NCBI RefSeq assembly: GCF_000283655.1
Contig: NC_016586.1
Location: 573,001-637,000, forward strand
Direction of reading: 5' to 3'
Length of the DNA: 64,000 nt
Source of the DNA: Azospirillum lipoferum 4B
GTDB lineage: Bacteria > Pseudomonadota > Alphaproteobacteria > Azospirillales > Azospirillaceae
Shown: in pieces, positions 7,711 to 47,471 of the stretch
Layout: each line of letters begins with the position of its first letter
Position numbering within the stretch: position 1 is the first letter of the stretch
Position numbers and translations under genes: made by a program
Notes under the pieces: generated by a model
The model's database searches: none
What the model was told of the DNA's origin: nothing
The model's input: the letters and a program-made list of their open reading frames with translations, nothing else

Positions 7711-8778
7711 ATGAAGACCATCAAAGGCCCCGCGATCTTCCTCGCCCAGTTCGCGGGCGACGCCCCACCCTTCAACTCGCTGGACGCCATCGCCCGCTGG
7801 GCTGCCGGCCTCGGCTTCAAGGGCGTTCAGATCCCCAGCTGGGACCGCCGCCTGTTCGACCTGCAGAAGGCAGCCACCAGCCGGACCTATTGCGACGAGG
7901 TCAAGGGCACGCTCGCCGATGCCGGCGTCGAGTTGACCGAACTGTCCACCCACCTGCAAGGCCAGCTCGTCGCCGTCCATCCCGCCTACGATGCCCTCTA
8001 TGACGGCTTCGCCCCGGCGGAGGTCCATGGTCGTCCCGACGCGCGGCAGGCCTGGGCGGTGGAGCAACTGCACCTCGCCGCCAAGGCATCCGCCAATCTC
8101 GGCCTGACCGCCCACGCCACCTTTTCCGGCGCGCTGGCCTGGCCCTATCTCTACCCCTGGCCGCAGCGTCCGCCCGGCCTGATCGAGACCGCCTTCGACG
8201 AGTTGGGCCGGCGCTGGCGCCCGATCCTCGATGCCTTCGACGAGGCCGGCTGCGACCTCTGCTATGAAATCCATCCCGGCGAGGACCTGTTCGACGGCAC
8301 CACCTTCCAGATGTTCCTGGACCGGGTCGATGGGCACAAGCGCTGCAACATCCTGTTCGATCCCAGCCACTTCGTCCTGCAGCAGCTGGACTATCTCGGC
8401 TACATCGACGTCTTCCACGACCGCATCCGCATGTTCCACGTCAAGGATGCGGAGTTCAATCCCACCCCCTGGCAGGGCGTCTATTCCGGCTATGCGCCAT
8501 GGAAGGACCGGGCCGGCCGTTTCCGCTCGCTGGGCGACGGACAGGTCGATTTCCGCGGCATCTTCTCCAAACTGACCCAGTACGGCTTCGACGGCTGGGC
8601 GGTGCTGGAATGGGAATGCTGCATCAAGCATCCGGAGCAGGGAGCCGCCGAGGGCGCCCGCTTCATCCAGGACCACATCATCCGCGTCACCGACCGCGCC
8701 TTCGACGATTTCGCCGATGCCGGAACCGACGAGGCGGCCAACCGCCGAATTCTGGGTCTGGGGAAAGGGACATCATGA
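7711..8778 (+). CDS. Sugar phosphate isomerase/epimerase, TIM barrel (AP_endonuc_2)
   Basis: Predicted xylose-isomerase-like TIM-barrel enzyme of 355 residues that would isomerise or epimerise the imported sugar or a keto derivative. Metal-ligand positions expected for the fold are present: CYEIHPGEDLF, ILFDPSHFVLQ, RMFHVKDAEF and AVLEWECCIKHP. The start at 7711 (MKTIKGPAIF) follows GGGGA. It overlaps the next gene by ATGA at 8775-8778, so the two enzymes are co-translated. With the Gfo/Idh partner it recalls inositol- or hexose-degrading pairs, in which one enzyme oxidises and the other isomerises; the exact reaction is inferred, not shown. Confidence 0.9.
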   Translation: MKTIKGPAIFLAQFAGDAPPFNSLDAIARWAAGLGFKGVQIPSWDRRLFDLQKAATSRTYCDEVKGTLADAGVELTELSTHLQGQLVAVHPAYDALYDGFAPAEVHGRPDARQAWAVEQLHLAAKASANLGLTAHATFSGALAWPYLYPWPQRPPGLIETAFDELGRRWRPILDAFDEAGCDLCYEIHPGEDLFDGTTFQMFLDRVDGHKRCNILFDPSHFVLQQLDYLGYIDVFHDRIRMFHVKDAEFNPTPWQGVYSGYAPWKDRAGRFRSLGDGQVDFRGIFSKLTQYGFDGWAVLEWECCIKHPEQGAAEGARFIQDHIIRVTDRAFDDFADAGTDEAANRRILGLGKGTS

Positions 8779-35774: not shown

Positions 35775-36863
35775 ATGACTGCCGGCCCGGTCGAAACCCT
35801 CGTCATGACAAGCCGGCCCACGGTTCGGCCCGCCCCTGGACGTGAGCACATGCCGCGGCCGACCCCACCGGCGGCCAGAGACAGAAACCTGGACATCATC
35901 CGCGTCACCGCCCTGGTGTTCATGGTGGCGGCCCATTGGGGGCGCGCGATGCCGGACGCCTATCGTCTCGTCAACATCATGCAATTCGTCTTCGAACTGG
36001 CGCCGGTGCTGTTCTTCTTCGCCTTCGGAATGACGCTCGACCGCTTCCTGGCAAAGCCGCTCGGCCGGCGGATCGAGGACCATCTGAAGCTGTTCATCCT
36101 GGCGGCCATCCACAGCCTGTATCAACAGAACAATCCGTTCTCCAGCGACTTCTTCATGTTTCTCTTCGCCGCCCGGCTGCTGTTCGATATCGCCGCCAGG
36201 GTCGGCGCCGCCAACCGGATGCTTGTCGGCCTTTTCCTTCTGGCGCTCTGCGGCGCCTGGGTCGCCTTGCCGCTTCCCTTCGTCTACGGCCTGTTCGTGC
36301 CATCCTTTCCCGGCTGGTTCCCTGTCTTCCCCTGGATCCTCTTCGTCGTTGCAGGCCGGGTGTTCGCCCACCACCGGCACTCACATGGTACCGCCATCCT
36401 CGCCCTGCTGGGCGTCTCGGTGGCGTTGTTCGACATCCTGGTTCTCGGTCACGGGCTGTCGAAATGGCCGCTGTCGCCCGATTACGCCCTGCTCTTCGGC
36501 AGCGGCACTGCGGTGAGCATCCTCATCCTCGACCGCATCCGTTGGCCCGCCTTCCTGCCCTGGCGAACCGTGGAGTTGCTGTCCGGCAATCTGCTGCTGG
36601 CGACGGCGCTGCATTATATCGCCGTCCTCGGGGTAACGGCGGCGCATGGCGCATTGGCTCCGATCCTCGCCGGGTCCGTTCCCGCCGCGTACCTGCCGGC
36701 GGTGTTCACGCTGGACTATGTCCTGATGACCGGTATCGCTCTCCTCATCCTGATCGCGCTGATTCACGCGACCCTGGCGGCCGGTGCGTGGCTCGACGGC
36801 CGCGGCATACTCGGCATCGCCGACACCCTGTTGCAGGGCAACGAGTCCAGGTTAATGCGATGA
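35775..36863 (+). CDS. Integral-membrane acyltransferase-like protein, 3' end altered by an insertion sequence
   Basis: 362 residues, mostly hydrophobic, with about ten membrane segments. The opening ARDRNLDIIRVTALVFMVAA plus HWGRAMPD resembles membrane acyltransferases of the heparan-N-acetyltransferase (DUF1624)/acyltransferase-3 type. AAGGAG lies 6 bases before ATG 35775. The insertion sequence begins at base 36848, so the last four codons (R-L-M-R) and the stop are supplied by it; the native C-terminus is lost or shortened. Function, possibly polysaccharide decoration alongside the glycosyltransferase remnant, is inferred. Confidence 0.65.
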   Translation: MTAGPVETLVMTSRPTVRPAPGREHMPRPTPPAARDRNLDIIRVTALVFMVAAHWGRAMPDAYRLVNIMQFVFELAPVLFFFAFGMTLDRFLAKPLGRRIEDHLKLFILAAIHSLYQQNNPFSSDFFMFLFAARLLFDIAARVGAANRMLVGLFLLALCGAWVALPLPFVYGLFVPSFPGWFPVFPWILFVVAGRVFAHHRHSHGTAILALLGVSVALFDILVLGHGLSKWPLSPDYALLFGSGTAVSILILDRIRWPAFLPWRTVELLSGNLLLATALHYIAVLGVTAAHGALAPILAGSVPAAYLPAVFTLDYVLMTGIALLILIALIHATLAAGAWLDGRGILGIADTLLQGNESRLMR

Positions 36864-38089
36864 AGGTGTAAGCAGGTTTGCCAGGACGTTTGGGTCCCAG
36901 CCTGCGAGCTTTCTGGTTGATTTGATGGAGTGTTTTCCCTTTCCCACGCGGACGGCATTGATGGCGAAGTGGCGGACGACGGCCATGTTCCGGGCGCCGT
37001 GTCCTTTTCGCAGGCGGGATTGATCTTCGCGGAAGGTGACGTCGAGGACCCAGTGCAGGCAGTTTTCGATGCCCCAGTGCCCGCGCACAGCTTGTTCGAG
37101 GCGGTGGGAGGTGAGCGCGGCCGAACTGAGGAAGAGGCGCCGCATGGTGCTTACGCTGCCGGCCTTTTCGACGACGCTCTCGACCAGGGCGATGGTCTTG
37201 AGGTGAGGGAAGCGGGGTTCGTCGGGATAGCGCCGGTCGCCCGACAGCCAGTCGACCTCCTGGCTGACGGCATAGCGGCGGCTCTCGATCCGGCCATGGC
37301 CTTTGTCGACAGCGGTGTGCTCGGCGATCCGGGCCTCGGGATCATCGAAGTAACGGCCGATCTCGGCGAACAGGGTTGGTTGATTGGCCTTTACCGCCAG
37401 CAGATAGTCGCCCTTGCGCTCGGTGATGGCTGTGGCGATGGCGGGATTGCAGGCGATGGCGTCGATGGTGACCACCGCGCCGTTCAGATCCAGGCGCTCC
37501 AGGATCTCGGGGATCACCGCGCACTCGTTCTCCTTCTCGTCCACGGCTTCCTGGGCCAGCACCAGGCGTTCGGTGGTGGCCCAGGCAGACACCAGATGCA
37601 GCGCCTTGCGCCCGGCGGCCCGGTCATGGCTGCGCCGCGAGGTCTTGCCGTCGATGGCGATCAGCTTCGGCGCGTCCGGGCGCAACGCCAACGCCCAATC
37701 GGTAAAGCAGGCCTGGAACAGGTCCGGCCCAATCCGGTTCATCACCACCCGAAGCCAGTCCGCACACGGCGTGCCGAAGTGGAACTCCGAAAAGCGCCGC
37801 AGGAACTCCAGATGATTACGCCCCCACAGGGCGATCTCATCGTAGTCCTCACAGTCCGCTATGGTCGCGGCCACCACCAGAAACAGCACCTCCCGCAGCG
37901 GGTACCGGACTTCCGGAGCCTCGCGCGGGTCCTTAAGGACGGAAAAATGGTCAAGCAGGCTGCGCAGGCGCGACCGCTGGAACGTCTCGTCGAACTCCTC
38001 GGACATCCGAGCCTCCCTCTCGTCGGGTAGGCCCTCCATGAATCACACTCCCCACCAACAGGGAATCCTCATCGTCAATCGTTAACCTG
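36848..38089 (-). mobile_element. Complete ISAs1-family insertion sequence
   Basis: 1242 bases bounded by terminal inverted repeats CAGGTTAATG (36848-36857) and CGTTAACCTG (38080-38089), nine of ten matching. One transposase gene fills it, and its stop codon lies within the left repeat. No direct target duplication is evident: left flank GCAACGAGTC, right flank ACCCCGTGGC. This suggests either an old insertion or a later recombination that replaced one flank. Confidence 0.9.
36852..38039 (-). CDS. Transposase, ISAs1 family
   Basis: 395-residue DDE transposase. The N-terminal DDE_Tnp_1-associated domain is seen in LLDHFSVLKDPREAPEVRYP; the DDE core in KLIAIDGKTSRRSHD, GAVVTIDAIACNPAIA and HWGIENCLHWVLDVTFRED. 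The frame is intact from ATG to stop, so the enzyme may be active. The stop TAA overlaps the left inverted repeat. A 366-residue frame on the opposite strand is only its shadow. Confidence 0.95.
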   Translation of the reverse strand: MEGLPDEREARMSEEFDETFQRSRLRSLLDHFSVLKDPREAPEVRYPLREVLFLVVAATIADCEDYDEIALWGRNHLEFLRRFSEFHFGTPCADWLRVVMNRIGPDLFQACFTDWALALRPDAPKLIAIDGKTSRRSHDRAAGRKALHLVSAWATTERLVLAQEAVDEKENECAVIPEILERLDLNGAVVTIDAIACNPAIATAITERKGDYLLAVKANQPTLFAEIGRYFDDPEARIAEHTAVDKGHGRIESRRYAVSQEVDWLSGDRRYPDEPRFPHLKTIALVESVVEKAGSVSTMRRLFLSSAALTSHRLEQAVRGHWGIENCLHWVLDVTFREDQSRLRKGHGARNMAVVRHFAINAVRVGKGKHSIKSTRKLAGWDPNVLANLLTPSSH

Positions 38090-38836: not shown

Positions 38837-39628
38837 TCAGGACCGCCTAACGCTGTCGGCCATTTTCTTGGCGACCACGAGCAGGTCGCTGTCAGACCGA
38901 CTGCCCGCAAGCGTGTATGCGGTGGCGCCGTTGCGCCAATAGACCAGCTGAAGCCCGCGCTCTTCGACGGCGTGCAGGCCCTTGTCGTCGATCGGATCCC
39001 CGGCGACGACCAAAAGCGTCAGCATCTCGCCATCCCGTTCGCGGTAGACGAACTGCAGGCCGACGCCGCTGTTCAACGGCACCAGGGTCGCCCGCAACAG
39101 CGTCAGCAGGTTCGGGTCCAAGGCCGGCAGCTTGACCGTGATTGGGCCAAGGCGGTGTGTGCTCCCCTCTGCCATCGCATTCAGATCCGCCAGGGACAGG
39201 TCCGAAAACGCCAGGCTTTGGCTGACGGCCGTTTCATGCATCTCGGCGGCTTCCTCCGCAAAGTCCGGCACGCTGTAGGAGGCCGTCTTCTGCTGGTGAT
39301 GGACCAGGGCCACGATGTTGGCGCCGCCCACCAGCAGCAGGATCGCCGCCGCGAGCGGACCGAAGCGCCGGATGAGGCGCTCCGTGCGCAAGCGGCCGTA
39401 CAGGCGCCCGGTCAGGCTTTCCGTGTGTCGGGGAGACTCGCCGGCCATCCGCGCAAAGCCTTGCCGCAGAGCTTCCCTCTGATGGAGATAGTCGTGCAGC
39501 CGGGCGGCGGCAGCCGGGTTGGAGGCGAGGAACGCCTCGAACGCCAACCGGCGCTCGGCATCGAGTTCGCCGTCGATATAGGCGTGCAGGTCGGCTTGGC
39601 ACTCACCGTTCATCCTGGTCCCCATCAT
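38837..39628 (-). CDS. Anti-sigma factor, membrane-bound
   Basis: 263-residue partner of the ECF sigma factor whose gene ends four bases upstream. An N-terminal cytoplasmic anti-sigma domain (CQADLHAYIDGELDAERRLA) lacks the Cys pair of zinc-type ZAS proteins. One membrane segment follows (about residues 92-111, PLAAAILLLVGGANIVALVH), then a periplasmic sensor part. ATG 39628 is used here; ATG 39613, preceded by GGGG, is an alternative. The signal that frees the sigma factor is unknown. Confidence 0.88.
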   Translation of the reverse strand: MMGTRMNGECQADLHAYIDGELDAERRLAFEAFLASNPAAAARLHDYLHQREALRQGFARMAGESPRHTESLTGRLYGRLRTERLIRRFGPLAAAILLLVGGANIVALVHHQQKTASYSVPDFAEEAAEMHETAVSQSLAFSDLSLADLNAMAEGSTHRLGPITVKLPALDPNLLTLLRATLVPLNSGVGLQFVYRERDGEMLTLLVVAGDPIDDKGLHAVEERGLQLVYWRNGATAYTLAGSRSDSDLLVVAKKMADSVRRS

Positions 39629-39631
39629 GGC

Positions 39632-40165
39632 TTACTTCACCACCCGCAAAGGCGCCGGCCTGCCGTCATCACCGCGGCCTCCCTCCCCACGCACATCGGC
39701 GCGCAGCGCCTCCCGCCCGCGCGCGAGGCGCGACATCAGCGTTCCAAGCGGAATGCTGAGAATCCCGGCGGCCTCCTGGTAGCTCATCCCGTCGACCGCG
39801 ACCAGTATGAGCGCCCGCCGCTGATCCTCGGGAAGCCGGGCGAAGGCCTCCATGGTGCGGGCGAGTTCGACCTGATCGGGCTGATTGGGCGCGATGTCGC
39901 TGCGGACGAGCGGCTCGATGGACGCCGCCGCACGGGTCCGCACCTGATCGCGGCGGCGGTCGCTGACATGGACATTGTGCAGGATGCCGAACAGCCAGGA
40001 GCGCAGGTTGGCCTCCGGCCGGTAGGTCCGGGCGCCGCCGATGGCCCGCACCAGCGTCTCCTGCACCAGATCTTCCGCGTCGTCCCGGTTGCGCACCAGG
40101 GTCATCGCGTAGCGGCGCAAGGTGCGGACGTGATCCGACAACTGGCTTCGCAGGCTCAACGTCAC
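39632..40165 (-). CDS. ECF sigma factor, RpoE type
   Basis: 177 residues. Region 2: RRYAMTLVRNRDDAEDLVQE and EANLRSWLFGILHNVHVSDR; region 4: LPEDQRRALILVAVDGMSYQ and AGILSIPLGTLMSRLARGRE. It is the usual alphaproteobacterial ECF form and has a cognate anti-sigma gene immediately downstream. Together with the two small membrane proteins upstream it may form a cell-envelope stress unit. Confidence 0.93.
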   Translation of the reverse strand: MTLSLRSQLSDHVRTLRRYAMTLVRNRDDAEDLVQETLVRAIGGARTYRPEANLRSWLFGILHNVHVSDRRRDQVRTRAAASIEPLVRSDIAPNQPDQVELARTMEAFARLPEDQRRALILVAVDGMSYQEAAGILSIPLGTLMSRLARGREALRADVRGEGGRGDDGRPAPLRVVK

Positions 40166-40971: not shown

Positions 40972-41000
40972 TTGCAGACTGCACGACGAGCAGATATGTT
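40972..41000 (+). promoter_or_regulatory. Sigma-70-type promoter overlapped by the Zur-like box
   Basis: TTGCAG (40972-40977), a 17-base spacer and TATGTT (40995-41000) match a housekeeping promoter moderately. The -10 element lies inside the 22-base palindrome, so a bound Zur protein would block RNA polymerase. Start of transcription would be near 41007, leaving a leader of about 530 bases that contains the cobalamin riboswitch. Confidence 0.55.
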
Positions 41001-41017
41001 ATGTTATAACATAACAT
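40996..41017. promoter_or_regulatory. Zur (zinc uptake regulator) box
   Basis: ATGTTATGTTATAACATA followed by ACAT is a perfect 22-base palindrome. Its core GTTATGTTATAACATAAC is the consensus for Zur operators in alphaproteobacteria. It is AT-pure DNA in a high-GC setting. The first gene it can control is the transport operon at 41535. Leftward control of the gene starting at 40816 is also possible. Related Fur-family regulators (Mur, Nur) have different operator sequences. Confidence 0.8.
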
Positions 41018-41204
41018 TATGGCCGATGACGATGACACGACCGCGCCCTCACCTGCGGAGACGCTCCCCGGACCTCTGCACCGCCCGGAACATGACCGAG
41101 ACCGATATCGACGCTGGAGCCGGCATCATGCCGCAAAGAGATTTCCCGCGGCCGTTCCGTTTCGAACCTTGACCTCCGCTGTCGGGTCGCTCATGAATGG
41201 CCCT

Positions 41205-41400
41205 GGTACTGGTTCTTCCGGCGGTCGCCGCCGGAAGCTAAGAGGGAATCCGGTGAGCCGCGTCGCGCGGCGAGACCGGAGCTGTCCCCGCAACTGTGAG
41301 CGGTGAGCCGTTCCGTCATTTCCTGCCACTGGCGCCCAACGGCGCTGGGAAGGCCGGACGGACCGGTGATGACCCGCAAGCCAGGAGACCTGCCAGCGCC
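41205..41400 (+). ncRNA. Cobalamin riboswitch
   Basis: The leader holds the conserved core elements in order: AAGAGGGAATCCGGTGAG, GGAGCTGTCCCCGCAACTGT, GCTGGGAAGGCCGG, GATGACCCGCAAG, and the B12 box AGCCAGGAGACCTGCC (41379-41394). It precedes a BtuFCD-like transporter, a CbiX-like protein and a TonB receptor, classical targets of this RNA. With adenosylcobalamin bound it should reduce expression. The expression platform lies between about 41400 and the start codon at 41535. Confidence 0.96.
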
Positions 41401-41534
41401 AAAACGAAACGTCCTCGGGCGGGGTGTCCCGGTGGAACGCTTGCCGACGCACGTCCGGACTTCGCGCCGGATTGGCCGCGTGTTCAGCAATGCGTCCGCC
41501 TCGACCATCCCGCCTGCAACGGCAGGATGCACGG

Positions 41535-42374
41535 ATGACGCCAGCACCTTCTCCCACCAGGGCACCCCGCCCCCGCCAGACCTCCGCCGTCGTGGTGGAG
41601 GGGCTGAGCTGCGAGCTGGCCGGCCGCAAGGTCCTGTCCGACATCGGCTTTTCCGTTGCGGAAGGGGCAATTCTCGGCATTCTCGGCCCGAACGGCTCGG
41701 GCAAGACCACACTGCTGCGCTGCATCGCCGGCCTGCAGGCACCCTCGGCCGGGCGGATCCGCATCGACGGTGCAGATCCGCGCGCCCTGCGCCCGGCTGA
41801 ACTGGCGCGCCGCTTGGCGCTCCAGGCGCAGGACTCGGCTGCGGCGCTCGGTTTCACCGTACGCGACGTGGTCGGCATGGGGCGGCTGGTCCACCGCCGC
41901 TCGGTCTTCTCGGCAAGCGGGGCGGAGGATCGCGCCATCGTCGAGGATGCGCTGGCCCGGCTGGAGCTGGAGACGCTGGCTGAACGGCCGGTCGAACAGC
42001 TGTCGGGCGGCGAGCGGCAGCGGGTGATGATCGCCCGCGCCCTGGCGCAACGCCCGCGCATCCTGCTGCTGGACGAGCCGACCAACCATCTGGACATCCA
42101 GCACCGCTTCGCAATCCTCGATCTGGTGCGTTCGCTGGGCATCACCGTGGTGATGACGCTGCACGACATCGAACTGGCGGCACGCTGGTGCGACCGCCTG
42201 CTGCTGCTGAAGGACGGCCGCCTGCAGGCCGACGCCGCGCCGGAAGAGGCGCTGACGGCGGAACGGCTCACCTCCGTCTACCGGGTCGCCGCCGCCGTGG
42301 ATCGCCGCCCATGCGACGGCCGGCTGCGCATCGACCTGTCGCCGCTGGCCCCGAACCGACTGGACATTGCATGA
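41535..42374 (+). CDS. ABC transporter ATP-binding protein (BtuD/FecE type)
   Basis: 279 residues. It has Walker A (LGPNGSGKTTLL), signature (LSGGERQRVMIARAL), Walker B (ILLLDEPTNHLD) and H-loop (MTLHDIELAARW) of metallo-chelate importers. The first gene after the cobalamin riboswitch, so a role in uptake of corrinoid or metal chelate is expected. An AGGA precedes ATG 41535. Stop overlaps the next start (ATGA at 42371-42374). Confidence 0.92.
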   Translation: MTPAPSPTRAPRPRQTSAVVVEGLSCELAGRKVLSDIGFSVAEGAILGILGPNGSGKTTLLRCIAGLQAPSAGRIRIDGADPRALRPAELARRLALQAQDSAAALGFTVRDVVGMGRLVHRRSVFSASGAEDRAIVEDALARLELETLAERPVEQLSGGERQRVMIARALAQRPRILLLDEPTNHLDIQHRFAILDLVRSLGITVVMTLHDIELAARWCDRLLLLKDGRLQADAAPEEALTAERLTSVYRVAAAVDRRPCDGRLRIDLSPLAPNRLDIA

Positions 42375-43357
42375 TCCCGTCCCTGTTCCGCCCCATTGTC
42401 CGCGGTGCCCTGCTCGCCGCCGGGCTTGCATTGACCCCCGCTCCCGCCCTTGCGCAGAGCTATCCAGTTGAGGTGGCCAACTGCTTCGAGACCGCCCGCT
42501 TCACCGGCCCTCCCAAGCGGCCGATGGTCCATGACGTCAACATGACGCAGACCATGCTGGATCTTGGGCTGGCCGACCGGCTGGTCGCGGTTTCCGGCAT
42601 CGCCGGGGCCGAACGCCACCTGATCGCACCGCCCGGCATTGTTGCCGCCCTGCCCCAGCTGCCCGACCGCGCCCCGACGCTGGAAGCGGTGCTGTCCGCC
42701 GACCCGGATTTCCTGTTCGCCGGCTGGAGCTATGGCTTCAACGAGGCGCGCGGCCTCACCCCCGCCCGTCTCGCCGAGATGGGCGTCGCGACCTACACGC
42801 TGCGGGAAAGCTGCATCCGCATCGGCCCGCGCGAACCGATCGGCATGGAGACGCTCTACGCCGACCTGCTGGCGCTGGGCCGGATCTTCGGCATCGCCGA
42901 CCGGGCGGAGGCCATGGTCGCCGACTTCCGCCGCCGCGTCGCCGCCGTGACCCGGCTGACCGGCACTGCCGCCCAGCGGCCGCGCGTCATGTATTGCGAC
43001 GATTGCCACACCGATGCCGCCCCGCTGTCGGTTGGGCGCGAGGGCATGACCAGCCTGCTGATGGAGCTGGCCGGCGGCCGCAACATCTTCGACGACATCG
43101 CCAACAGCTATGTCCGGGTCAGTTGGGAGGAGATGGCGCGGCGCGATCCGCAATGGATCATCGTCAGCGACCACCGCATCCCGGCCGAAGCCGCCATCCG
43201 CTACCTGCTGTCGGCCCCGCAGCTGGCCGACGTCGAGGCGGTGCGCAAGCGGCAGTTCATCGTCCTGACCTATGCCGAACAGACCCCCTCGACGCGCAAC
43301 GTCGATGCGCTGGAGCGGATGGCGCGGACGCTGCACCCGGAGCTGTTCACGCCATGA
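42371..43357 (+). CDS. Periplasmic binding protein, BtuF/FepB type
   Basis: 328 residues. A signal peptide ends near ALAQSYPVEV. The two-lobe, helix-backbone fold is shown by VANCFETARF, LGLADRLVAVSGI, SADPDFLFAGWSYGF and LLMELAGGRNIFDDI. A CDDCHTD segment in the second lobe is unusual for the family and could bind a metal. The ligand (cobalamin, cobinamide or another metal chelate) cannot be fixed from sequence. Stop overlaps the permease start (ATGA at 43354). Confidence 0.9.
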   Translation: MIPSLFRPIVRGALLAAGLALTPAPALAQSYPVEVANCFETARFTGPPKRPMVHDVNMTQTMLDLGLADRLVAVSGIAGAERHLIAPPGIVAALPQLPDRAPTLEAVLSADPDFLFAGWSYGFNEARGLTPARLAEMGVATYTLRESCIRIGPREPIGMETLYADLLALGRIFGIADRAEAMVADFRRRVAAVTRLTGTAAQRPRVMYCDDCHTDAAPLSVGREGMTSLLMELAGGRNIFDDIANSYVRVSWEEMARRDPQWIIVSDHRIPAEAAIRYLLSAPQLADVEAVRKRQFIVLTYAEQTPSTRNVDALERMARTLHPELFTP

Positions 43358-44382
43358 ACCGCGCCCGCGCGCTGCGTCTGTGCCTGGTGCTGTCCGCCGC
43401 CCTGATCCTGTCGCTGTTCGCCGCGGTCGGCTTCGGCGCCGCCCGCATCCCCACGACCACCGTCTGGTCGGTCGTCTCGCACGAGCTTTGGCCGACGGTG
43501 TTCCCGGCGGACGGCATCGGCCGGGCGGAGCGCAACATCGTCTGGGAATTGCGGCTGCCCCGTGTTCTGCTGGGCGTGCTGGCCGGCGCCGGACTGGCCG
43601 CGGTGGGGGCGGTGTTGCAGGTGGTGACGCGCAACCCGCTGGCCGACCCCTATCTGTTCGGCGTGTCGGCCGGCGCGTCGGTCGGCGCGGTGAGCGTCAT
43701 CCTGTTCGCCGGCGTGGTGGCCGGAACGCTGAGCCTGCCGGCCGCCGCCTTTCTCGGCGCGCTCGCCGCGATGCTTGCCGTCTTTGCCGCCGCGCGCGGG
43801 CGCGACGGCAGCGTGACCAGCGAGCGGCTGGTGCTGACCGGCGTCGCGGTCGCCTTCATCCTGCACGCCGTCACCAACGCCCTGATCGTCGCGACGGCTG
43901 ACCGCAGCGCCGACGCCGCGCTGTTCTGGATGATGGGCGGCTTCGGCACCGCGCGCTGGAGCGTCCTGCCGGCACCGGCGCTGCTGACGTTGTGCGGGCT
44001 CGGCTGGCTGTGGCTGCGGGCGGAGACGGTGAACACGCTGGCGCTCGGCGACGATGCCGCCCGCTCGCTCGGCACCGATCCGCAGCGGCTGCGGCTGGAG
44101 CTGTTCGTCGTCACCGCGCTGATGACCGGCGCGCTGGTGTCGGCCTGCGGCGGCATCGGCTTCGTCGGGCTGGTGCTGCCCCACATCGCGCGCCTGCTGG
44201 TGGGCGGGCATCTGCGGATGCTGCTGCCGGTGGCCGCCCTCGGCGGGGCCTTGCTGCTGCTGTGGGTGGATGTCGCCGCCCGCACCCTGTTCGCCCCGCG
44301 CGAGATCCCCGTCGGCGTGGCCACGGCCCTGGTCGGCGGCGCCTTCTTCCTGTGGCTCATGCGCCGCCGCGCGGCGGCCTGA
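43354..44382 (+). CDS. ABC transporter permease, BtuC/FecCD type
   Basis: 342 residues with about ten membrane segments. FecCD motifs: ELRLPRVLLGVLAGAGLAAV, NPLADPYLFGVSAGASVG and GGIGFVGLVLPHIARLLVGG. Partner of the ATPase and binding protein. Long basic C-terminus (WLMRRRAAA). Expression is coupled to the upstream gene by the four-base overlap. Confidence 0.93.
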   Translation: MNRARALRLCLVLSAALILSLFAAVGFGAARIPTTTVWSVVSHELWPTVFPADGIGRAERNIVWELRLPRVLLGVLAGAGLAAVGAVLQVVTRNPLADPYLFGVSAGASVGAVSVILFAGVVAGTLSLPAAAFLGALAAMLAVFAAARGRDGSVTSERLVLTGVAVAFILHAVTNALIVATADRSADAALFWMMGGFGTARWSVLPAPALLTLCGLGWLWLRAETVNTLALGDDAARSLGTDPQRLRLELFVVTALMTGALVSACGGIGFVGLVLPHIARLLVGGHLRMLLPVAALGGALLLLWVDVAARTLFAPREIPVGVATALVGGAFFLWLMRRRAAA

Positions 44383-44398: not shown

Positions 44399-45184
44399 AT
44401 GACCACCCCCCTTCGATCGCCGCCGCGCGCCATCGTGCTCTACGGACGCGCCTCCTTCGACCATGGGCAGAACCTGAAGGCGCTGGCCGCGGCACTGACC
44501 GCCCTTCAGGCCGCACGCGGCGTTCCCGTGACGGTGGCGACCGCCTATGCCGATCTGTCCGGCCCGGCCCTGCCCGCCGTGCTGGCGGAGCTGGAACGCG
44601 CCGGCATCGAAGAGGCGCTGGTGATCCCCAGCATGGTGCCGGCCGACCCCAGCCTGTCGGCCTGGCTGCCGGGCGCACTCAGCCAGTGGGCCTCGACACG
44701 CGATTCACGAATGACGGTGCGGCTGGCGCCTGCAGTGGAAAGCGCATTGGACCTGCCGGCAGCCCTCGACCGCATCGCCGGCGGCCCGACGGACAGCCTG
44801 GACGATGTGCGCAGCGTCGAGCCCAGCCTGGGCAAGCCCGGCTGGTCGGAGATCCCCGAACATCGGCGGCAGCTGTTCTTCTGCACCGGCGCGCGCTGCC
44901 TGCATCGCGGCGCCGATGCGCTGTACCAGCATCTGCGCGCCGCCATGAAGCCCCATCGCGCGCTGAATGCCGGTCCCCGCCGGGTGATGTGCGCGCGGAC
45001 CAGCTGCCTCTATCCCTGCAACCGCGGGCCCTTGCTGGTGATCCAGCCGGACGCGGTCTGGTACGGCGGGCTGACGCCGGAGCGGATCGACCGCATCGTC
45101 GAGCGGCATCTGCTGGCCGACAGCCCGAGCGCCACGGACATCCTGCACCGCAACCGGCCGGCGGAGGACGCCCCGATGGGCTGA
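44399..45184 (+). CDS. CbiX-like domain fused to a 2Fe-2S ferredoxin-like domain
   Basis: 261 residues. Residues 10-125 have the chelatase (CbiX/HemH-like) fold: IVLYGRASFDHG, EELERAGI-like helices, ALVIPSMVPADPS. The two His residues that bind the metal in characterised CbiX enzymes are not found at the matching positions (YGRAS and IPSMVPAD instead). Residues 155-215 form a thioredoxin-like 2Fe-2S domain with C162, C167, C198, C203 and C207. This fusion is seen with cobalamin-riboswitch operons in alphaproteobacteria; a redox or cobalt-handling role is inferred, chelatase activity is doubtful. Confidence 0.8.
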   Translation: MTTPLRSPPRAIVLYGRASFDHGQNLKALAAALTALQAARGVPVTVATAYADLSGPALPAVLAELERAGIEEALVIPSMVPADPSLSAWLPGALSQWASTRDSRMTVRLAPAVESALDLPAALDRIAGGPTDSLDDVRSVEPSLGKPGWSEIPEHRRQLFFCTGARCLHRGADALYQHLRAAMKPHRALNAGPRRVMCARTSCLYPCNRGPLLVIQPDAVWYGGLTPERIDRIVERHLLADSPSATDILHRNRPAEDAPMG

Positions 45185-45311
45185 CGCCGCCGCACCGCCC
45201 GGTAAATCCCGGAACGCTTTCCCAACAAGACCAGAGCCGACCGCCCCCGCGAAGACCGCCTTCGCGGAACGCATTTCCATGCCCTTTCCAAGTCAAACTG
45301 GAGGATCATCG

Positions 45312-47471
45312 ATGCCGCCTGCCCGTTCCCGCCGCCATCGCCGCCGCCCGGCCCCGCTGGCGACGCTGTTCCTGGTCGCCGCCACCGTCGCACCGGCGGC
45401 CGCAAATGCCGAGGACAGCGACGCGCCGCTCACCTTGTCCCCGGTCACGGTGACCGGGCGTTCGGCAGATGCGGCCCCCGCCGGGCTGGCGCTCGACCGG
45501 CCGAACAGCGGCGGCAGCCGGCTGGACCTGACCCCGCTGGAGACCCCGGCCAGCATCGAGGTGATCTCCGGCCGGACCGTCCGCGAGCGCAGCCAGACCA
45601 GCGTGACCGAGGCCGTCACCCAGAACGCCACCGGCTTCACCACGCTGGCGGCACCCGGCAATGGGGGGTCATCGCTGGCGACGCGCGGCTTCGCCGGCCA
45701 TGGTTCGGTAATGCAGCTCTATGACGGCACGCGGCTCTATGTCGGGTCGGGAACCGTCACCTTCCCGTTCGACACATGGTCGACGGAGCGGATCGAGGTG
45801 CTGCGCGGCCCCGCCTCCGTCCTCTATGGCGAGGGGGCCATCGGCGGCGTCGTCAATGTGGTGCCCAAGCGGCCGACGACGGAGTTCCGCAACGAGGCGA
45901 TGGCCGCCGTCGGCACCGACGGCACCCGGCGCGCCGCCATCGGCAGCGGCGGTCCGGTCAGCGAGAAGCTGTCCTACCGGCTGGACGTCAGCGGCAACCG
46001 CTCCGACGGCTGGGTAGACCGCGGCGACACCAGGAATCTCGCGGTATCGGGGGCCGTGAAGCTGCAGGCGACGCCGGACCTCGCCGTCACCCTGTCCAAC
46101 GATTACGGCGACCAGCAGCCGCAGGAGTATTTCGGGACGCCGCTGATCGCCGGCAGTCTCGACCGCGCGCTGCGGCACCGCAACTTCAACGTCGCCGACA
46201 GCGAAATCCGCTATCGCGACAACTGGACCCAGCTGAAGGCAGAATGGGCGGTATCCGACGCGCTGACCCTGCGCAACACCGCCTATCACCTGACCAGCCA
46301 CCGCCATTGGAAGGACGTGGAAAGCTATGCCTGGAACGCCGCCAGCCGGCGGGTGATGCGCGACAGCTACATCGAGATCTACCACGACCAGCGGCAGGTG
46401 GGCGACCGTTTCGACGCGACGTGGCGCAGCAGCCTCTTCGGCATGAAGAACGAGATGGTCGGCGGCTTCGACCTGAACCGGATCGAGTTCAAGCACACCA
46501 ACAACTCGCCCTATGGCGGCTCCAGCACGGTCGATCCGTTCGACCCGGCGCCCGGCCTGTTCCTCAACAGCGCCGGAACCACCCCGCGCAGCCGGTCGCG
46601 CACCCGCCAATATTCCCTGTTCGCCGAGGACCGGCTGTCGCTGACGCCGCAGCTGTCGCTGGTCGGCGGCATCCGCTATGACGCGCCGACGGTGGAGCGC
46701 TGGGATCTGGTGACGGGAACCAGCTACACAAAGGACTTCCGCGCCACCAGCTGGCGGACCGGCGCGGTGTACGAGGTGGTGCCCGGCCTCGCTTTCTACG
46801 GCCAATACGCCACCGCGGTCGATCCTGTCGGGAATCTGATCTCGCTGTCGCCGACGCAGAAGGATTTCGACCTGTCCACCGGCCGGCAGGTCGAGATCGG
46901 CGTCAAGCAGTCCTTCCTGGAGGGGCGCGGCGAGTGGACGCTGGCCGCCTATCGCATCGTCAAGGACAAGCTGCTCACCACCGATCCCAACCGGCCCGGC
47001 GTGACGATGCAGGTCGGCCGGCAATCGTCGCGGGGGCTGGAGGCGTCCCTGTCGCTCGGCCTGTGGGAGGGGGTGCGGGTGGACGTCAACGGCGCGCTGC
47101 TGCGGGCCAAATATGACGACTTCACCCAGTCCGTTTCGGGCCGCGCGGTGTCCTATGCCGGCAATGTGCCTACCGGCGTGCCGGAACGCACCGCCAATGT
47201 CTGGGCCAACTGGGCCTTCCTGCCGGATTGGGAGGTTCGGGCCGGCCTGCAATATGTCGGCAAGACCTATGCCGACGCCGCCAACAGCAGCGTCCGGCCC
47301 GCCTACACCGTGGTCAATGCCGGGCTGGACTACCGGCCGACCGGCAACACCAAGCTGAGCCTGCGCGCCTTCAACCTGTTCGACGAGGTCTATGCCGTGG
47401 CAGGCAGTGCTAACAGCTGGGTGCTCGGCCGCCCGCGCTCGGCCGAACTCGCCTTCTCGATGACCTTCTGA
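45312..47471 (+). CDS. TonB-dependent receptor for metal chelate or corrinoid
   Basis: 719 residues. Signal peptide ends near ANAEDSD; TonB box-like TLSPVTVTG; plug with TPASIEVISGRTVRER, GGSSLATRGFAGHG, RIEVLRGPASVLYGEGAIGG; a long barrel ends in AELAFSMTF with a terminal Phe. No STN domain, so it does not signal to a sigma factor. ATG 45312 has GGAGG at about 45300. It resembles siderophore receptors (FhuE/FcuA branch) more than BtuB, which leaves the ligand open. Last gene of the riboswitch operon. Confidence 0.9.
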   Translation: MPPARSRRHRRRPAPLATLFLVAATVAPAAANAEDSDAPLTLSPVTVTGRSADAAPAGLALDRPNSGGSRLDLTPLETPASIEVISGRTVRERSQTSVTEAVTQNATGFTTLAAPGNGGSSLATRGFAGHGSVMQLYDGTRLYVGSGTVTFPFDTWSTERIEVLRGPASVLYGEGAIGGVVNVVPKRPTTEFRNEAMAAVGTDGTRRAAIGSGGPVSEKLSYRLDVSGNRSDGWVDRGDTRNLAVSGAVKLQATPDLAVTLSNDYGDQQPQEYFGTPLIAGSLDRALRHRNFNVADSEIRYRDNWTQLKAEWAVSDALTLRNTAYHLTSHRHWKDVESYAWNAASRRVMRDSYIEIYHDQRQVGDRFDATWRSSLFGMKNEMVGGFDLNRIEFKHTNNSPYGGSSTVDPFDPAPGLFLNSAGTTPRSRSRTRQYSLFAEDRLSLTPQLSLVGGIRYDAPTVERWDLVTGTSYTKDFRATSWRTGAVYEVVPGLAFYGQYATAVDPVGNLISLSPTQKDFDLSTGRQVEIGVKQSFLEGRGEWTLAAYRIVKDKLLTTDPNRPGVTMQVGRQSSRGLEASLSLGLWEGVRVDVNGALLRAKYDDFTQSVSGRAVSYAGNVPTGVPERTANVWANWAFLPDWEVRAGLQYVGKTYADAANSSVRPAYTVVNAGLDYRPTGNTKLSLRAFNLFDEVYAVAGSANSWVLGRPRSAELAFSMTF

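What the first reader, a model, noticed from the sequence alone, without database searches (positions are those of the whole stretch)
40972..41535. Zur box and cobalamin riboswitch stacked upstream of one transport operon
Seen: a perfect 22-base palindrome with the core GTTATGTTATAACATAAC overlaps the -10 of a promoter; a full cobalamin riboswitch follows in the leader; then come ATPase, binding protein, permease, CbiX-like/2Fe-2S protein and TonB receptor. Known: such a palindrome is the alphaproteobacterial Zur operator, and the riboswitch senses cobalamin. Inference: the operon is expressed only when both zinc and cobalamin are low, linking zinc starvation to corrinoid or cobalt supply, perhaps because Co can replace Zn or because the cargo is a shared metallophore.
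Basis: partly seen in the sequence, partly recalled or inferred. Interest (0 to 1): 0.82.

Follow-up and report, generated by a model that had tools for sequence, protein, structure and literature searches.

The report
Zinc-and-B12-controlled probable cobalt importer
A nutrient-import operon in a soil bacterium carries both a zinc-repressor site and a vitamin B12-sensing RNA switch in its leader, a pairing that recurs in other bacteria and suggests that the cell imports cobalt, the metal of B12, partly to make up for missing zinc.

Summary
A 22-bp perfect palindrome (40996-41017), a cobalamin riboswitch (41193-41411) and an ABC/TonB operon are there. A motif model trained only on znu and azt zinc-transporter promoters of relatives scores the site above every training site. 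Zur-like genes were found in 5 of 5 genus genomes tested. The box precedes the riboswitch in 8 of 11 operons of the genus and in Telmatospirillum, and is conserved while its flanks are not. Two relatives carry a second box and zinc ABC genes beside this operon.

The inferred AND logic is doubtful: a second promoter-like element (TTGACC, 41169) sits at the riboswitch's 5' end in 11 of 11 genus operons, including the three without a box. Elsewhere the pairing recurs with the opposite order, through zigA, or with either element alone (63 loci).

Best reading: a cobalt (chelate) importer serving two cobalt demands, B12 synthesis and replacement of zinc. A similarly organised P. aeruginosa system, PA2911-PA2914, is Zur-regulated and proposed to import pyochelin-cobalt; I did not compare its sequence. 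Cobalamin cargo remains a serious rival. Binding, transcription and cargo are untested here. The 'CbiX-like' label is weak, and both chelatase histidines seem absent.

The parts
40972..41000 (+). Distal promoter-like element P1: TTGCAG (40972-40977), 17 bp, TATGTT (40995-41000)
   Evidence: coordinates; TTGC lies exactly 26 bp before the 18-mer box in 7 of 8 genus loci with a box, not in G056; no consensus promoter found by scan
40996..41017 (.). Zur-type operator, 22-bp perfect palindrome holding two overlapping GTTA-N5-TAAC sites 5 bp apart (40998-41010, 41003-41015)
   Evidence: matrix trained on znu/azt sites gives 48.6, the 20 training sites 35.9-44.8
41169..41198 (+). Proximal promoter-like element P2: TTGACC (41169-41174), 17-18 bp, ATGAAT (41193-41198)
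   Evidence: TTGACC in 11 of 11 genus loci, with or without a Zur box, and TTGACA in Telmatospirillum; the -10-like part varies in G003, G005 and G012; not found by consensus scan
41193..41411 (+). Cobalamin riboswitch aptamer RF00174, with L5 sequence CCCCGC inside GTCCCCGC at 41284
41416..41431 (+). Expression-platform hairpin CGGGCGGGGTGTCCCG; its loop GCGGGG can pair with L5 CCCCGC (kissing loop; translational control inferred, no terminator found)
   Evidence: assignment of the kissing loop is from recalled knowledge of the class
41535..42374 (+). ABC transporter ATPase (BtuD/FecE-like); an in-frame GTG at 41424 would extend it
42371..43357 (+). Substrate-binding protein, PF01497 (Peripla_BP_2)
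43354..44382 (+). FecCD/BtuC-type permease
44399..45184 (+). Protein with weak CbiX-like N-terminal half and thioredoxin-like 2Fe-2S ferredoxin C-terminal half
45279..47471 (+). TonB-dependent receptor of the siderophore type (TIGR01783, 275.7 bits over the 223.5 cut-off)

Best explanation
The operon encodes an outer- and inner-membrane importer for cobalt, most likely as a metal chelate. Its leader sums two signals of cobalt demand. A distal promoter (P1) is shut by zinc-loaded Zur bound across its -10 and start region and opens in zinc starvation, when cobalt can stand in for zinc. A proximal promoter (P2), not covered by the operator, supplies basal transcription. Both transcripts pass the cobalamin riboswitch, which blocks expression (probably translation, through the L5-L13 kissing loop) when adenosylcobalamin, and so cellular cobalt, is sufficient. 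Output is about (P2 + P1 when zinc is low) x (B12 low), not a strict AND. Shown by sequence: operator, riboswitch, operon, conservation, recurrence of the pairing in other lineages. Inferred: Zur binding, promoter activity, mode of riboswitch control, cobalt as cargo.
For: Operator identity: the motif with up to 2 mismatches gives 27 distinct sites in 22 of 25 genus genomes: 14 at znuA/znuCB, 6 at azt-type zinc ABC loci, 4 at this operon, 2 elsewhere, 1 not inspected (gene names mostly by eye, 5 proteins Pfam-checked). Matrix trained on the zinc sites only: window 48.6; in the 362,516 bases scanned (stretches fetched round such sites, plus the window) all hits above 33 are the zinc, operon and two 'elsewhere' sites. 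Zur-like genes in 5 of 5 genomes. Box identity 0.91 against 0.27-0.52 in flanks. Linkage: second box and azt-type zinc ABC directly after the TonB receptor in G003 and G005; in Shinella aztABC/aztD-Fur-zigA-riboswitch-DUF1636-ABC, then a Ni/Co transporter gene. Recurrence: 19 of 63 loci have both elements, 15 box-first and 4 riboswitch-first. Precedent: PA2911-PA2914 Zur-regulated, proposed pyochelin-cobalt importer (abstracts and passages).
Against: No experiment on this locus. The promoter-like elements are below the consensus threshold. I could not compare PA2911-PA2914 sequences: a published primer matched 0 of 398 genomes of the one genus searched. The closest solved TonB receptor is a Bordetella copper receptor, not a cobalt one. 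A characterised riboswitch-controlled Btu-like system (Anabaena) takes up cobalamin. Of 63 loci, 25 have the riboswitch without a box, 4 have the box only in front of a zigA-type gene, 10 have neither at my thresholds; 3 of 11 genus operons lack the box. A riboswitch veto is odd if cobalt is needed to replace zinc in a B12-replete cell.
Confidence: 0.5

Rival explanations
1. Cargo is cobalamin or another corrinoid. Zinc starvation raises the need for B12 because B12-dependent enzymes (for example MetH) spare zinc-rich ones (MetE; recalled), so Zur and the riboswitch both control a B12 importer.
For: BtuC-like permease (221 bits, below the 334 cut-off); cobalamin riboswitch; Anabaena riboswitch-controlled TonB/BtuFCD system with a ferredoxin-like gene takes up cobalamin; Pederick et al. 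raised cobalamin import for PA2911-PA2914; a zinc-requiring cobalamin-independent methionine synthase is up in the Caulobacter zur mutant.
Against: The receptor is far from BtuB (TIGR01779 95.1 bits, cut-off 599.7; solved BtuB chains 32-35 bits against about 135 for CntO/FoxA and 376 for a copper receptor). Relatives under a Zur-type box with no riboswitch exist (5 of 63).
Confidence: 0.3
2. Cargo is a zinc chelate (zincophore); cobalt or B12 control is secondary, because the same chelator also carries cobalt.
For: Zur box and azt linkage; CntO, the metal-pseudopaline receptor, is among the closer solved receptors.
Against: The riboswitch is present in 48 of 63 loci (B12-box pattern), which a pure zinc system would not need. 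In the P. aeruginosa system cobalt fell in a PA2914 mutant, while zinc did not differ when PA2914 was lost from the znuA zrmB strain (passage).
Confidence: 0.12
3. The palindrome is a functional Zur site but P1 contributes little to this operon (it serves a small RNA or an unannotated reading frame), or it is a relic.
For: 65-525 bp separate box and riboswitch in the nine loci measured (177 bp in the window), with P2 in between.
Against: The box stays with the operon while left neighbours change (by eye), TTGC spacing is fixed at 26 bp in 7 of 8 loci, and the start codon of the 41019-41306 frame is not shared by the other loci (by eye).
Confidence: 0.08

Closest known systems
Pseudomonas aeruginosa PA2911-PA2914 (Zur-regulated TonB receptor + ABC importer, proposed pyochelin-cobalt import; Pederick 2015 PMC4542158, Secli 2024 PMC11481552)
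   Same: Gene make-up (TonB receptor, ATPase, binding protein, B12-type permease), Zur control, link to zinc starvation
   Different: The word riboswitch does not occur in the main text of the three papers searched; no CbiX-like/2Fe-2S gene named in the passages seen; sequence identity to the window not tested
Anabaena Btu-like system alr4027-btuD (PMC10878165)
   Same: Cobalamin riboswitch, TonB receptor, ferredoxin-like gene, BtuFCD-type ABC
   Different: 'Zur' does not occur in that paper's main text; shown to take up cobalamin; sequences not compared
Alphaproteobacterial Zur operators at znu/azt/zigA
   Same: Same palindrome and overlapping GTTA-N5-TAAC units
   Different: Here it precedes a cobalamin riboswitch
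Bordetella BfrG/CrtA copper TonB receptor (entries 9RVQ/9RVX deposited with PMC12914433)
   Same: Closest solved receptor, 376 bits
   Different: Copper-repressed operon with a PepSY protein; no ABC importer or riboswitch named in the passages seen

Membership tests
Zur operator | Palindrome matching the zinc-regulon motif of the same genus | tested here: met
Zur operator | Zur encoded in the same genome | tested here: inconclusive
   Own genome not held. In relatives: a FUR-family member of the Zur kind in 5 of 5 genomes (L134-L138); for the two scanned the NCBIfam Zur model is the top hit but below its cut-off, 111 and 104 of 167 bits; L137's best solved matches are 7dh7, named only 'fur family' (Xanthomonas Zur by recall), then E. 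coli-type Zur 4mtd
Zur operator | Zinc-dependent binding and repression | not testable with these tools
   Needs gel shift and reporter
Cobalamin riboswitch RF00174 | Covariance score over gathering threshold | tested here: met
   123.7 against 31.5 bits
Cobalamin riboswitch RF00174 | Response to adenosylcobalamin | not testable with these tools
   None
BtuB/BtuCDF B12 importer | Receptor and ABC parts over equivalog cut-offs | tested here: not met
   TIGR01779 95.1 of 599.7; BtuC 221 of 334; BtuD 129.7 of 281; BtuF 24.4 of 234
CbiX cobaltochelatase | CbiX domain over cut-off and catalytic histidines | tested here: not met
   18.3 of 22 bits; invariant YGR in 9 of 9 members where CbiX has HGS (recalled), and Ser where 3lyh has His; that two histidines are catalytic is from passages, their places from recall
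F420-0 ABC transporter (TIGR03868/03869/03873) | Scores over curated cut-offs | tested here: not met
   129 of 392, 262 of 437, 260 of 372 bits, though they are the top NCBIfam hits of the three ABC parts
PA2911-PA2914-type Zur-regulated cobalt chelate importer | TonB receptor + ABC genes under a Zur-type box | tested here: met
PA2911-PA2914-type Zur-regulated cobalt chelate importer | Sequence orthology to PA2911-PA2914 | tested here: inconclusive
   The P. aeruginosa locus was not reached (0 of 398 genomes)
PA2911-PA2914-type Zur-regulated cobalt chelate importer | Cobalt uptake | not testable with these tools
   None

The most novel reading that the evidence does not exclude
Bacteria repeatedly wire one cobalt importer to two unrelated sensors: the protein Zur for zinc lack and a cobalamin RNA switch standing in as a cobalt-sufficiency gauge. 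Lineages choose the logic by order: operator before the switch (zinc induction subject to a B12 veto, with a basal bypass promoter) or after it (zinc induction escapes the B12 veto). Cobalt-for-zinc substitution would then be a widespread, regulated programme and not a Pseudomonas peculiarity.
Probability: 0.42. Interest if true: 0.76.

Novelty: new variant of a known kind. Interest (0 to 1): 0.62.

Why it matters
Zur control of a probable cobalt importer has been reported in one pathogen as unexpected. Finding the same wiring, stacked with a B12 riboswitch, in soil Azospirillum and again in other parts of the importer family would suggest that cobalt supply is a general part of the zinc-starvation response, and gives a natural series of leaders (Zur box only, riboswitch only, both in either order) for testing how two metal signals are combined on one transcript.

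Tried and rejected
Strict AND logic: rejected as unproven because of the conserved P2 element. F420-0 and B12-importer equivalogs: below cut-offs. Chance palindrome: rejected. Box serving the left neighbour: left neighbours change while box and operon stay (by eye). A published PA2911 primer was used to look for the P. aeruginosa locus in 398 genomes of one unnamed genus: 0 matches. Literature searches for the combination: in an open-licence library only. I saw listings (one search listed 20 of 105 papers) and, for nine papers, abstracts or passages; the five 'Zur' places in PMC7689651 were not among the passages shown. I saw no report of a Zur box stacked with a cobalamin riboswitch in what I read, and claim no more than that.

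Limits of the counts. The 63-locus table is not a random sample. It used a B12-box pattern and an 18-mer score of at least 15 of 18 within 1.3 kb of the first operon gene found. All 19 loci with both elements have an Rfam-confirmed riboswitch, and the 5 box-only loci have no Rfam riboswitch; 10 of the 48 riboswitch calls (L036, L182, L185, L187, L192, L196, L197, L198, L200, L202) and 9 of the 10 'neither' labels rest on the pattern alone. The tenth, L033, is labelled 'neither' although Rfam finds riboswitches at 2554-2776 and 8129-8341. L188, L189 and L191 are labelled 'neither' although they have a palindrome 17 of 21 like the gamma-type Zur motif (motif recalled). L035, L037-L053 and L057 were not in the table. 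L031's box is weak (17.6). Enrichment of boxes near the operon in 32 loci: with a 700-bp limit 7 hits near and 9 far; I then moved the limit to 1 kb after seeing five hits at 794-948 bp, which gives 12 near and 4 far, Fisher 3e-11; the limit is post hoc and related genomes are not independent. The tree is a quick one with long branches; the fewest changes were 11 for box and 8 for both, with no shuffle control printed. The matrix background is sequence fetched round such sites, so it is a small and chosen background.

Full report
What is there. The window comes from Azospirillum or close kin: the nearest named permease is 97% identical, in Azospirillum sp. B21. The palindrome ATGTTATGTTATAACATAACAT lies at 40996-41017 and is the only perfect palindrome of 18 bp or more in the window; the 18-mer has a single match with up to three mismatches in the window and none in 100 shuffles. 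It consists of two overlapping GTTA-N5-TAAC units 5 bp apart, the unit that a Caulobacter Zur paper calls conserved in Zur sites of many proteobacteria (PMC4176598, passages). It covers a -10-like TATGTT spaced 17 bp from TTGCAG. A cobalamin riboswitch (123.7 bits) follows at 41193-41411, then ATPase, binding protein, permease, 2Fe-2S protein and TonB receptor.

Is it a Zur box. In 41 relatives the motif with up to two mismatches occurs in 24, against 2 for the pattern read backwards. In the 25 genus genomes of that set there are 27 distinct sites in 22 genomes: 14 between znuA and znuCB, 6 before azt-type zinc ABC genes, 4 at this operon, 2 elsewhere (L103, L104) and one not inspected (gene names mostly read by eye; Pfam confirmed ZnuA in L105, ZnuA-type and DUF1826 proteins in L094, DUF1826 and an ABC-3 permease in L102). 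A matrix trained only on these 20 znu/azt sites gives the window site 48.6, above all training sites (35.9-44.8); in the 362,516 bases scanned, which were fetched round such sites or are the window, everything above 33 is a zinc site, an operon site or L103/L104. Each of five genomes tested has a FUR-family gene of the Zur kind (L134-L138); in the two scanned the NCBIfam Zur model is the top hit but below its cut-off; the one compared with solved structures matches 7dh7 (named 'fur family', Zur by recall) and the zinc uptake regulator 4mtd best; a COG0523-like GTPase follows in the three read by eye.

Does it belong to this operon. The operon occurs in 10 of 45 genus genomes and in none of 37 other genomes of the family (E up to 1e-50). 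Seven of those 10 have the box before the riboswitch, plus the window and, outside the order, Telmatospirillum J64-1; three (G012, G019, G058) do not, and in G019 and G058 a cobN-like gene lies upstream. Pairwise identity over eight genus loci is 0.91 in the box against 0.27-0.52 in the flanks, and TTGC lies exactly 26 bp before it in 7 of 8. In G003 and G005 a second box, a DUF1826-type gene (Pfam-checked in G003) and an azt-type zinc ABC transporter (AztA 54-56% identical to Shinella's) follow the TonB receptor directly.

The missing element. TTGACC followed after 17-18 bp by ATGAAT or a variant sits at the riboswitch's 5' end in all 11 genus loci, including those without a box, and TTGACA in Telmatospirillum. 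The five leaders of genus g314 with both elements likewise show, by eye, TTGACA before the box and TTGCGA-N17-TA at the riboswitch. If these are promoters, the operon is transcribed without P1, and zinc status adjusts rather than gates it. The promoter scan found neither element by consensus, so this rests on conservation.

Recurrence. Binding-protein relatives were found in 9 of 385 class genomes (E up to 1e-50) and 35 of 398 phylum genomes (E up to 1e-45). Over the 63 loci examined (tree): both elements 19 (15 box-first, 4 riboswitch-first), riboswitch only 25, riboswitch preceded by a box and a zigA-type gene 4 (L203 and L204 by tblastn; L215 annotated; L217 by eye), box only 5, neither 10 at these thresholds. 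Riboswitches of all 19 'both' loci are Rfam-confirmed, and the five box-only loci have none; ten riboswitch-only calls rest on the B12-box pattern alone. The box-bearing loci fall in separate parts of the tree; the fewest changes are 11 for box and 8 for both, without a shuffle control. In Shinella the ABC genes follow aztABC/aztD, a Fur-family gene and zigA, and a nickel/cobalt transporter gene comes next on the other strand.

Cargo. A similarly organised operon, P. aeruginosa PA2911-PA2914, has a Zur site and is up in a znuA mutant (PMC4542158, abstract and passages); it is proposed to import pyochelin-cobalt on mutant, feeding and metal-content data (PMC11481552, abstract and passages), and cobalt relieves zinc starvation and can act on Zur (PMC13083405, abstract and passages). 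'Riboswitch' does not occur in the main text of those three. The window receptor is of the siderophore type: a Bordetella copper receptor (375.6 bits), then CntO/FoxA (about 135), BtuB far lower. Cobalt is the one substance that both signals readily point to. Against it, an Anabaena riboswitch-controlled Btu-like system takes up cobalamin (PMC10878165, passages), so the cargo is inferred, not shown.

The 2Fe-2S protein. The C-terminal ferredoxin domain is firm. The CbiX half is below threshold (E 0.003), with a weak match to a solved CbiX (E 4e-4 by profile, 0.11 alone), and the histidine positions carry Tyr and Ser; it is unlikely to be a chelatase. G005 gave no strong match to it and none was seen in its operon.

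Verdict. The logic is better described as a Zur-inducible promoter added upstream of a riboswitch that already has its own promoter-like element. The linkage of zinc starvation to cobalt or corrinoid supply is supported by comparative data and one studied parallel, and unproven at this locus.

Noticed in passing
window 38837-40165 (-): ECF sigma factor gene followed by a putative anti-sigma gene (zf-HC2 match just under its cut-off) left of the operon.
   Followed up: no
window 36852-38039 (-): Transposase-like open frame (looks like the ISAs1 type, by recall; not searched) near the operon, which is patchy in the genus.
   Followed up: no
L055 4886-9617 and 16362-16844 (A. brasilense Sp7): A cobN-like gene, ExbB and DUF2149 genes precede the riboswitch where the Zur box is missing, and nikR follows the receptor; P. 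aeruginosa PA1922-PA1925 (cobN-like, ExbD) is also Zur-regulated in the literature.
   Followed up: partly
L104 7490-7507: A strong Zur-type box just before a family-5 solute-binding protein gene, with FecCD-type permease and ATPase genes nearby on the other strand: a candidate further zinc or metallophore system in Azospirillum G010.
   Followed up: no
L103 3602-3619: A strong Zur-type box beside phage-like genes (by eye) in G012; possibly chance.
   Followed up: no
L147 12840-13019: A second, weak cobalamin riboswitch match (37.5 bits) upstream of the Zur-type box, so the box lies between two riboswitch matches.
   Followed up: no
L134-L137, just before the start codon of the Zur-like gene: A degenerate box (ATGTTATAAAGTAAC) at the start of the Zur-like gene in four of five genomes, suggesting autoregulation.
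   Followed up: no
window 42371-43357: The binding protein has a YCxxC motif (CDDCHT here) shared by 11 of 15 aligned relatives and missing in L035, L036, L037 and L041; two other cysteines (C38, C148) are invariant in 15 of 15.
   Followed up: no
window 41424: A GTG inside the L13 hairpin opens a frame continuous with the ATPase; the VSRWNAC start is shared by several relatives, perhaps only because the RNA is conserved there.
   Followed up: partly
L089 4422-4554 (-): TPP riboswitch in the neighbourhood of the operon in G001.
   Followed up: no
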